Shown: positions 1-1,705 of the stretch, piece by piece | Position numbering within the stretch: the stretch's first letter is position 1 | Layout of the letters: every line of letters starts with the position of its first letter | Assembly (NCBI RefSeq): GCF_000750005.1 | Contig: NZ_JPYA01000169.1 | Span: forward strand, 1-48,262 | Source: Geobacillus icigianus | GTDB lineage: Bacteria; Bacillota; Bacilli; Bacillales; Anoxybacillaceae | Length of the DNA stretch: 48,262 bases | Reading direction: 5' to 3' | Translations under genes and position numbers: made by a program | Notes under the pieces: model-generated | Seen by the model: the letters and a program-made list of their open reading frames with translations, nothing else | Databases searched by the model: none | Told to the model about the DNA's origin: nothing

Positions 1-109
1 CATCCACAATATGAACGAGATGCTTGATGACCGGTTTCGAGAAATAAAGCGCCAATCCCAGCGTCATGAAAAACTTGTGGATTCCTTGATGATGTGCTAA
101 TCTATTCAT
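1..109 (-). CDS. Transposase N-terminus, partial (runs off the window)
   Basis: The first 36 codons of a transposase are present; the rest lies beyond the left edge. The product begins MNRLAHHQGIHKFF and then GLALYFSKPVIKHLVHIVD, which I recall as the start of a common Geobacillus transposase of the IS4/IS701-like type. That family call is from memory and not checked. The ATG at 109 is preceded by a strong AAGGAGG at a good distance. An in-frame upstream ATG is closed by a stop, so this start is well supported. The Shine-Dalgarno lies inside a long inverted repeat (110-177). Confidence 0.7.
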   Translation of the reverse strand, partial: MNRLAHHQGIHKFFMTLGLALYFSKPVIKHLVHIVD

Positions 110-177
110 GAGACATGAACCTCCTTGCGGGTAGTTTGAGCACATCTATTTTACTCAAGGAGCTGGGTTCATGTCTC
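110..177 (-). promoter_or_regulatory. Inverted repeat covering the transposase ribosome binding site
   Basis: The arms at 110-126 and 157-177 are complementary (GAGACATGAACC against GGTTCATGTCTC, then the AAGGAG stretch with a small bulge). In a transcript entering the element from outside, this hairpin would bury the transposase AAGGAGG. A transcript started inside the loop would lack one arm and leave the site free. Protection of this kind is known for IS10 and IS50; applying it here is inference. Confidence 0.6.
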
Positions 178-267
178 CTTTTTTGTTTAGCTGTCAATTT
201 ATGTTAGCAAATTTGCTCATCTACAGTAAAGTGGAAAAATCATTTTCCTGAGTTTTCAATCGTCATA

Positions 268-459: not shown

Positions 460-494
460 AAAAGGGACCTTTGGATATCCAAGGTCCCTTTTTT
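460..494 (-). terminator. Rho-independent terminator after hag
   Basis: A near-perfect inverted repeat (AAGGGACCTT, TGGATATCCA core, AAGGTCCCTT) is flanked by T or A runs on both sides, so it can work in either direction. It lies 14 bases beyond the second copy of the flagellin stop codon (508-510). That placement suggests the hag transcription unit includes the intron and the downstream exon. Confidence 0.85.
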
Positions 495-507
495 GATTTG
501 GCTAAGA

Positions 508-552
508 TCATCGAAGTAATTGAAGAACTCCTTGTGGTTGTTGGTTGGATTG
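508..552 (-). other. hag: Downstream exon of hag: second copy of the flagellin C-terminus
   Basis: Read on the minus strand from 552, these 15 codons give [14 protein letters not shown] and a TGA stop at 508-510. This matches the classic flagellin C-terminus (B. subtilis flagellin ends [16 protein letters not shown]). The stretch has no start codon of its own. It directly follows the predicted 3' end of a group I intron (G at 553). Splicing from position 938 to 552 joins codons in phase, GCT to CAA. Confidence 0.8.
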
Positions 553-937
553 CCATGCCTCAACGTCTTTCGACCGTTGTGTAGACTATATCTTCACCCT
601 CAGCTTGACCTGTTAGGGGCTGGGCACTTCGGGGGTCGGCGATTGCCTCCCCTACGGACTTCATCGCCATAGCGTTTCGCCTTAGGTGGTATGTCCTAGT
701 CGTTGAACCTTCTCCACCCTTTCGGGACAGGAGCTTGGCTGCTGGTTGCCCATTGTTGCATCTTTCCTTTTTTTCAAGCCATCACGCCTGCTGTTTCCAG
801 CTACGTTGTGGCAAGGAAAGCTTTAGGGGATCCCAGCAATTCACCCAGTCATACTCTAGCTCGTTTCCAAGCTAGACGCCCTTCCAATCAAATTACCGAA
901 GTAGTTGCAACACTCCCTGCGGCATTTGATTGGATTG
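553..937 (-). ncRNA. Group I self-splicing intron in the flagellin gene
   Basis: The conserved core is present on the minus strand. The Q-type element CCAGCAGCCAAGCTCC is at 745-730. The P7 strand GACTA is at 701-697 and pairs with TAGTC in the S element AAGATATAGTC at 594-584. A P9-like hairpin with a GAAA tetraloop is at 579-561. P1 can be drawn with exon GCU and intron C (940-937) pairing GGGC (882-879), which puts the required U-G wobble at the splice site (938-881). It is extended by a perfect 10-bp helix, 933-924 with 894-885. The last intron base is G (553). Size about 385 nt; no homing endonuclease ORF. The boundaries are my inference. Introns of this class have been reported in flagellin genes of thermophilic bacilli. 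Confidence 0.85.
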
Positions 938-1705
938 AGCCAACATAGCTTGCGCCGCTTGCATTAAGATATTATTTTTAGTGAATTCCATCATTTCTTT
1001 CGCCATATCAACATCACGGATACGTGATTCAGCAGCAGTTAAGTTTTCTGCAGTTGCGCCAAGGTTGTTGATGGTGTGTTCTAGGCGGTTTTGAACAGCC
1101 CCAAGCTTCGAGCGTTCTCTCGACACTGTTTCAATTGCATTGTTAATTTTCGAAATCGCGGCATTTGCGCTTGATGCCTTCGTTACGCTTAACCCGTTTA
1201 CCGAGAGCGCAGCTGCACCCATATTGCCAATTGATAATGTGATCGATTGGCCGCTATTTGCCCCGATTTGGAACATTTTCGCCGAAAAGCTACCATTCAG
1301 AAGTTTTTGCGTGTTGAATTCCGTGTTATTGGCGATACGAGTAATTTCCAATGAAAGAGCACTAATCTCCGCTTGGATTGCACTACGGTCAGCACTTACG
1401 TTCGTATCGTTTGCGGCCTGAACGGCAAGTTCGCGCATGCGTTGAAGGATCGCATGTGTCTCGTTTAACGCACCTTCAGCGGTTTGGATCAACGAGATGC
1501 CGTCTTGCGCGTTTTTTGATGCCATTTCCAGACCGCGGATTTGGCCGCGCATTTTTTCAGAGATGGCAAGGCCTGCTGCATCGTCGCCAGCGCGGTTGAT
1601 GCGGTAACCCGAAGACAGTTTTTCCAAGTTTTTCGCCGCTTGCGTGTTGTTGAATGACAATTGGCGATACGTGTTCAACGCAGAGATGTTGTGTTGGATT
1701 CTCAT
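893..1705 (-). CDS. hag: Flagellin
   Basis: Flagellin is the filament subunit, exported through the flagellar type III apparatus. The product (270 aa) begins [16 protein letters not shown] and has the conserved N-terminal D0/D1 helices (residues 1-140, [20 protein letters not shown]), a short variable middle, and the C-terminal D1/D0 helices ending [16 protein letters not shown]. It is shorter than B. subtilis Hag (304 aa) because the middle is small. The ATG at 1705 follows AAGGAGG by 7 nt. The last 14 codons and stop (937-893) lie inside the predicted intron. Splicing would replace them with the exon at 552-508 and change one residue, M to Q. Expression is likely set by sigma-D and by CsrA. 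Confidence 0.97.

What the first reader, a model, noticed from the sequence alone, without database searches (positions are those of the whole stretch)
508..940. Group I intron whose 5' end encodes a substitute flagellin C-terminus
The last 14 flagellin codons occur twice: once continuous with hag (937-893, [14 protein letters not shown]) and once beyond a group I intron core (552-508, [14 protein letters not shown]). With the splice sites I infer (U938 and G553), the first copy lies inside the intron. Unspliced and spliced RNA would then both encode complete flagellin, differing by one residue (M or Q). The intron could be neutral to its host even when it fails to splice, and could switch transcript 3' structure with temperature or growth. 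The first copy also forms the extended P1 helix, so one sequence codes for protein and folds the ribozyme.
Basis: partly seen in the sequence, partly recalled or inferred. Interest (0 to 1): 0.9.

Follow-up and report, generated by a model that had tools for sequence, protein, structure and literature searches.

The report
Flagellin intron with its own ending
A probable self-splicing intron near the end of a bacterium's flagellin gene carries its own copy of the protein's last 14 residues, so the message reads as a complete flagellin whether or not the intron is removed, and related bacteria keep both copies intact.

Summary
A group I intron (RF00028, 70.2 bits, cut-off 50) sits in hag after U938. 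Its first 45 nt encode [18 protein letters not shown]; the 3' exon, 552-508, encodes [18 protein letters not shown]. The arrangement is conserved: in 67 distinct introns at this site, picked without looking at the copies, copy 1 is intact in 67 and copy 2 in 66 (one cut by a contig end). Copy 1 evolves as coding sequence beyond the P1 pairing: codons 7-14 of 68 introns show 49 DNA variants, 9 peptides, no stop (0 of 3000 column shuffles). Its first codons also form the P1 extension, with compensatory changes. Unspliced and spliced readings are therefore probably both translated and useful. Splicing was not shown here; self-splicing of a Geobacillus flagellin intron is published. Beyond the finding: a second flagellin site (after RDVD), empty in this window, holds a related intron in 87 copies examined. 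Its in-frame tail is YALAA or similar (80 of 87 end Ala-Ala), like the host tmRNA proteolysis tag; that case is likely but less secure. The two introns look like two answers to one problem: unspliced message yields a whole flagellin at one site, a fragment marked for destruction at the other. Function is inferred, not tested.

The parts
938..1705 (-). hag 5' exon (MRIQ... to ...QAMLA), ending at U938
   Evidence: ORF 893-1705; flagellin by match to solved flagellins such as 6t17, E 7.8e-105
553..937 (-). group I intron, 385 nt, inferred splice sites U938|C937 and G553|C552; longest ORF wholly inside on the same strand 36 aa
   Evidence: RF00028 match 901-561, 70.2 bits; ORFs; borders from reading frame, the U and G rule and comparison with intronless relatives
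893..937 (-). copy 1: intron-encoded substitute C-terminus [14 protein letters not shown] plus UAA stop
   Evidence: intact in 67 of 67 site-B introns picked by core motif
924..934 (-). 5' strand of the P1 extension (codons 2-5 of copy 1)
   Evidence: fold z -4.35; 97.9% of cells paired, 5 of 13 pairs with changes on both sides
883..893 (-). 3' strand of the P1 extension; its first base is the last base of the copy-1 stop codon
937..940 (-). P1 core at the 5' splice site, GCU|C
   Evidence: pairs with 881-878; unvaried in all 15 distinct rows
878..881 (-). internal guide sequence GGGC; G880 opposite U938
561..901 (-). extent of the Rfam group I match
508..552 (-). 3' exon, copy 2: [14 protein letters not shown] plus UGA stop
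   Evidence: differs at residue 2 only from [14 protein letters not shown], the commonest intronless end (36 of 56)
460..492 (-). hairpin with T run after copy 2, possible hag terminator
   Evidence: my reading of the sequence; the scan reports only its plus-strand side at 469-484, with 4 sites found against 3.0 expected in the region, so weak

Best explanation
It is a group I intron inserted 14 codons before the end of hag whose 5' end carries a working spare of those 14 codons and a stop. If the message is translated before or without splicing, ribosomes end flagellin on copy 1 and stop before the ribozyme core; if it splices, U938 joins C552 and flagellin ends on copy 2. Both products are complete flagellins. 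The first codons of copy 1 double as the 5' strand of the P1 extension beside the splice site. The likely reason is protection against the cost of translation ahead of splicing in a heavily translated message. Shown: both copies, their conservation, coding-type constraint on copy 1, the P1 covariation, the core. Inferred: splicing at these sites, translation of both forms, equal function.
For: Rfam match above cut-off. Copy 1 intact in 67 of 67 distinct site-B introns picked by core motif and upstream exon alone; copy 2 found in 66, the other (G016) being cut by a contig end, with a copy 2 on another contig of that genome. Of two genes called intronless that seemed to hold a second copy, one is a further site-B intron with a variant core and one a false pattern match. 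Family set (19 introns): pN/pS of copy 1 codons 7-14 is 0.07, 0 of 20000 column shuffles as constrained. Wider set (68 introns): pN/pS of codons 6-14 is 0.135 for copy 1 and 0.142 for copy 2; codons 7-14 show 49 DNA variants, 9 peptides, no stop, 0 of 3000 shuffles; copy 1 versus copy 2 in codons 7-14, summed over introns, 314 synonymous and 18 non-synonymous codon differences; the last residue agrees in 68 of 68, including 3 Q/Q and 2 G/G pairs. P1 extension on 15 distinct family rows: 97.9% of cells paired against 88.3% shuffled and covariation score 0.283 against 0.107 (both 0 of 500), 5 pairs with changes on both sides (6 of 500). Over 55 distinct strand pairs, own strands pair better than swapped ones: 14.35 against 11.77, sd 0.30, best of 300 swaps 12.64.
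Against: No RNA or protein evidence was available. By my reading P1 at site B has only 3 base pairs on the exon side (GCU with GGC) and no clear P10, so splicing could be inefficient or need help. The sequences are related, so shuffles overstate independence, and the count of further pair types in P1 does not exceed shuffles (189 of 500). Copy 1 differs from copy 2 by 1 to 4 residues in each of the 68 introns, and its codons 1-5 are much less constrained than those of copy 2 (pN/pS 0.33 against 0.08), so equal function is assumed. The 49 wider introns were first collected with a pattern that required both copies; only avoids that.
Confidence: 0.8

Rival explanations
1. Regulated switch: the two ends give flagellins with different properties, and temperature or translation sets the ratio.
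For: Copy 1 has a recurrent signature ([14 protein letters not shown] in 27 of 68) unlike the usual copy 2 ([14 protein letters not shown] in 52 of 68) and the commonest intronless end (36 of 56). PMC4853749 (passage) says flagellin intron activity is temperature dependent with a possible regulatory role. P1 extensions are stronger in the window's family: mean helix score 20.8 over 19 introns against 13.0 over 49 others.
Against: Residues 2-5 of copy 1 are those that pair in P1, so the signature may be a by-product of folding. Host-specific last residues match in both copies, which suggests equal rather than different function. A similar QSNQLPQ ends a paralogous flagellin.
Confidence: 0.2
2. 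Copy 1 is only an RNA element: it is conserved because it forms P1 and its loop, and its coding sense is accidental.
For: Codons 2-5 pair in P1 with compensatory changes.
Against: Codons 7-14 lie outside the conserved P1 pairing yet vary almost only synonymously, with no stop in 49 variants; the host-specific last residue is matched in copy 1.
Confidence: 0.03
3. The intron is dead: copy 1 is the only end used and copy 2 is a relic.
For: No splicing data here; weak P1.
Against: Copy 2 is found in 66 of 67 and its codons 6-14 are as constrained as those of copy 1; the core is recognisable over 20 family labels (my hand count); a self-splicing flagellin intron of Geobacillus is published (title cited in PMC3984707, paper not held).
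Confidence: 0.05
4. The in-frame stop serves only to keep ribosomes out of the ribozyme core, as proposed for other protein-gene introns.
For: In-frame stops after the upstream exon occur in many group I introns and are viewed as helping folding (PMC3984707, passage).
Against: A stop alone would not need the whole conserved flagellin end before it; it explains the stop, not the copy. Probably true in addition.
Confidence: 0.05

Closest known systems
Group I introns in flagellin genes of thermophilic Bacillus species (Hayakawa and Ishizuka 2009, 2012; papers not held, seen only as citations and in one summary passage)
   [quoted passage not shown] self-splicing in the 2009 title, temperature dependence per PMC4853749.
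   Different: The passages I saw mention no second copy of the C-terminus and no degron-like tail; whether the original papers do is unknown to me.
Other protein-gene group I introns of this order (nrdE-like, thyA-like and others; gene names by my recall)
   Same: Recognised by the same Rfam model; reading frame ends soon after the upstream exon in many.
   Different: Of 45 non-flagellin intron loci, 42 gave a readable tail; recurrent ones are ...HLVEQGGSR and ...CQLYQR, and 1 of 42 ends Ala-Ala. I did not test whether any of these tails copies the host's own 3' exon.
IStrons (group I intron plus insertion element)
   Same: Reported to give alternative protein variants (PMC4853749, passage).
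   Different: No long ORF in this intron; the alternatives here are spliced versus unspliced, both encoding the flagellin end.
tmRNA (ssrA) proteolysis tags
   Same: Site-A intron tails end like the host tag: YALAA in 58 of 87, Ala-Ala in 80 of 87; the tag in this genome is GKQNYALAA.
   Different: Encoded in cis by an intron and read by ordinary translation. Absent from the window, which lacks the site-A intron.

Membership tests
Group I intron (RF00028) | Covariance-model score above the curated cut-off | tested here: met
   70.2 bits against 50
Group I intron (RF00028) | P1 with U-G wobble at the 5' splice site | tested here: met
   U938 opposite G880, unvaried in 15 of 15 distinct rows; also in the fold
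Group I intron (RF00028) | G as last intron base, exon reading frame restored | tested here: met
   G553; 3' exons read as flagellin ends in 19 of 19 family introns and 49 more, all of which were located by pattern
Group I intron (RF00028) | P10 pairing of the 3' exon with the guide sequence | tested here: inconclusive
   by eye only about one base pair at site B
Group I intron (RF00028) | Guanosine-started self-splicing | not testable with these tools
   needs RNA work
Flagellin introns of Hayakawa and Ishizuka | Located in the flagellin gene of a Geobacillus or relative | tested here: met
   flagellin; three contigs of same-genus genomes have the lengths of named Geobacillus records
Flagellin introns of Hayakawa and Ishizuka | Same insertion site | not testable with these tools
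   papers not in the library
ssrA-like C-terminal degron (site-A introns, not in the window) | Ends in LAA or a known variant such as LVA or AAV | tested here: inconclusive
   80 of 87 end AA, 5 VA, 1 AS, 1 AV; most are LAA, but some third residues differ (for example YTEAA, YASAA)
ssrA-like C-terminal degron (site-A introns, not in the window) | Recognised and degraded by ClpXP | not testable with these tools
   needs protein work

The most novel reading that the evidence does not exclude
Flagellin group I introns of Bacilli have evolved coding 5' ends that decide the fate of the protein made from unspliced message: at the site 14 codons from the end they supply a complete substitute C-terminus, and at the site 37 codons from the end, where that would be long, they supply a C-terminal degron like the host tmRNA tag, so the truncated fragment is destroyed. 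The introns thereby make themselves nearly harmless, or turn splicing into a clean on/off control of flagellin.
Probability: 0.7. Interest if true: 0.92.

Novelty: new variant of a known kind. Interest (0 to 1): 0.86.

Why it matters
How group I introns persist in bacterial protein genes, where translation runs ahead of splicing, is an open question. Here is a widespread natural case in which the intron appears to encode the remedy itself, possibly in two different ways at two sites of one gene, with one stretch of RNA read both as codons and as the splice-site helix. It also means that a plain reading of these genes gives the unspliced product: a variant end at site B, or a truncated protein ending in YALAA at site A.

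Tried and rejected
Rejected: chance duplication (recurs in relatives); copy 1 as pure RNA structure; copy 2 as relic. A homing endonuclease in the intron: longest same-strand ORF inside 553-937 is 36 aa, longest overlapping one on the other strand 81 aa; no profile search was made of them. Phage source: distant blastn finds 71 phage records matching part of the intron, none covering 80% of the query; not followed. Literature: the listings (70 returned nothing), plus passages of PMC3984707, PMC4853749 and PMC9382460, showed no paper on a duplicated C-terminus or degron tail in a flagellin intron. The one paper holding both 'YALAA' and 'flagellin' (PMC9753991) was seen as a listing only. The two original flagellin-intron papers are not held, so this is no proof of absence.

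Results against or limiting my reading. Of 45 non-flagellin control loci, 42 gave a readable tail; 1 (L177) ends Ala-Ala and seven nrdE-like tails end in a single Ala. My notes first said none ended in AA and used 41 as the total; the script used 41 too; the recount is 1 of 42 (Fisher p 5e-23 against 61 of 66 order tails; related sequences, so not a true probability). In the site-A hairpin the Ala codons mostly pair, so RNA and peptide constraint are mixed: of 76 distinct folded hairpins the second base of the last codon is unpaired in 17, of which 16 read GC. On the family site-A rows the number of pairs changed on both sides (2) is reached by 370 of 500 shuffles and that of further pair types (7) by 498, though paired cells and covariation score exceed all 500. 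pN/pS of site-A codons 4-5 is 0.28. Tails outside the order came from a pattern that itself demands Ala-like codons and are not used as evidence. Family P1 counts used 19 of 20 site-B introns; G016 was dropped because its intron is split over two contigs. The wide collection required intact copies; one search repeated the choice by core motif alone. In one search only the best matches were listed; eight listed hits were not fetched. The 30 genomes for the second tmRNA survey were chosen by me to over-represent unusual tails.

Full report
What is there. On the minus strand of the window, hag (1705-893) ends [18 protein letters not shown]; 340 bases on, at 552-508, the same end is encoded again as [18 protein letters not shown]. 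Between them lies a group I intron core, RF00028 at 901-561, 70.2 bits against a cut-off of 50. The first copy is then the first 45 nt of a 385-nt intron whose longest same-strand ORF is 36 aa. What I take for csrA and fliW lie upstream (my naming from the ORF sequences).

How common it is. In the 41 genomes of the family held here, 20 have the intron at this place (site B), counting one split over two contigs. From group I hits in 397 genomes of the order (most of the listed best hits fetched or held, eight listed ones not), I collected 49 more site-B introns in 48 loci, by hand count over 20 family labels including the window's own. Chosen by core motif and upstream exon alone, 67 of 67 distinct site-B introns have copy 1 intact and 66 have copy 2; the other is cut by a contig end, and a second copy lies on another contig of that genome. 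Two of 56 genes without the core motif were flagged for a second copy: one is a site-B intron with a variant core, the other a false match. Named records with both copies are Geobacillus jurassicus, G. thermodenitrificans, Anoxybacillus vitaminiphilus, Parageobacillus caldoxylosilyticus, P. thermantarcticus and Bacillus suaedaesalsae.

Copy 1 behaves as coding sequence. Within the window 8 of the 9 codon differences between the copies are synonymous, the stop included. In the family, pN/pS of copy 1 codons 7-14, outside the P1 pairing, is 0.07, and none of 20000 column shuffles is as constrained. Over 68 introns, codons 7-14 show 49 DNA variants, 9 peptides and no stop (0 of 3000 shuffles); pN/pS of codons 6-14 is 0.135 for copy 1 and 0.142 for copy 2; summed over introns the copies differ in codons 7-14 by 314 synonymous and 18 non-synonymous codons; the last residue agrees in 68 of 68, with Q in both copies in 3 and G in both in 2. 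Codons 1-5 are looser in copy 1 (0.33) than in copy 2 (0.08), and the copies differ by 1 to 4 residues in each intron. The unspliced reading therefore very likely matters for the protein.

Copy 1 is also RNA structure. The 82 nt around the 5' site fold at -30.9 kcal/mol (z -4.35) with U938 opposite G880 and an 11-bp P1 extension whose 5' strand is codons 2-5. On 15 distinct family rows 97.9% of cells pair (shuffled 88.3%, 0 of 500; slid versions 24-60%), the covariation score is 0.283 (shuffled 0.107, 0 of 500) and 5 of 13 pairs show changes on both sides (6 of 500). Over 55 distinct strand pairs from the 68 introns, own strands pair better than swapped ones: 14.35 against 11.77, sd 0.30. Relatedness inflates these contrasts, but quite different strands still match (UCCAAUCAAA/UUUGAUUGGA, GCAAAUAACCAGC/GUUGGUUAUUUGC, UCAAACCAAC/GUUGGUUUGG).

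Mechanism. Most likely, a ribosome that reaches the intron before it is excised finishes flagellin on copy 1, stops ahead of the core and leaves; a spliced message finishes on copy 2, whose usual peptide ([14 protein letters not shown], 52 of 68; QSNQQ... in this window) is also the commonest intronless end (36 of 56). The gene works either way. That splicing happens here is inferred from the core and from published self-splicing of a Geobacillus flagellin intron (cited in PMC3984707; passage in PMC4853749). A temperature switch between two flagellin forms is possible but not tested.

A second site that sharpens the picture. Twenty-one of the 41 family genomes carry a related intron 37 codons before the end, after RDVD (12 carry both; the window has only site B). 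There a substitute end would be long; instead the in-frame tail is YALAA-stop or similar. With 66 more from the order: 58 of 87 tails read YALAA, 80 of 87 end Ala-Ala, 5 end VA, 1 AS, 1 AV, against 1 of 42 readable non-flagellin intron tails. The tmRNA tag of 29 of 29 family genomes tested ends YALAA (this genome: GKQNYALAA), with partly different codons in the six genomes where I set tag and intron side by side; the tags of 23 of 30 further genomes, those that ARAGORN could read, all end Ala-Ala. In the 17 distinct family hairpins the two pairs that change on both sides fall at third codon positions; tails with an extra codon (YDLIAA) or a lost stop (YALAASAA) still end Ala-Ala. Because the Ala codons mostly pair in the hairpin and some shuffle measures are unremarkable, peptide selection is likely but less secure than at site B. 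The review PMC9382460 (passages) names LAA as the common tag end and LVA and AAV among used variants. The simplest reading is that unspliced site-A message yields a truncated flagellin marked for ClpXP.

Novelty. Flagellin group I introns are known; an intron-borne spare of the host protein's end, kept under coding selection and doubling as P1, and a tag-like tail at a sister site, I did not find in the searches made, with the caveat that the two original papers are not held.

Noticed in passing
family loci L011, L012, L016, L017, L025-L028, L032-L036, L038-L044, L062 and 64 of the order loci L124-L240 (site A, after RDVD): Second flagellin intron site whose in-frame intron tail is YALAA or similar, like the host tmRNA tag.
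   Followed up: yes
L289-L296 (genomes of other orders of the class): Site-A introns outside the order with tails YAKAA, YAEAA (4), YVLAAA, YVLTAA, YVIAA: the middle changes, Ala-Ala stays; the sample is biased by the search pattern.
   Followed up: partly
L013, L018-L020 and order loci such as L164, L208, L228: Introns in what looks like nrdE (my recall) with a recurrent in-frame tail HLVEQGGSR, some running on to GKSA, GKVA or RVA; unexplained.
   Followed up: no
L070-L073 (G010, G009, G007, G011): A paralogous flagellin ends QSNQLPQGILQLLKS, resembling copy 1 at its first residues; possible source of copy 1.
   Followed up: no
site-B P1 extensions: P1 extensions are stronger in the window's family (mean helix score 20.8, 19 introns) than in the 49 others (13.0), as if tuned to growth temperature.
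   Followed up: partly
G000:C97:26835-27001 (L002): Second, sub-threshold group I match (27.9 bits) in this genome, beside a coding frame that by my recall looks like a phage tail tape-measure protein; not searched.
   Followed up: no
window 1-200: Inverted repeat and an open-ended ORF at the contig edge that by my impression could be an insertion sequence; not searched.
   Followed up: no
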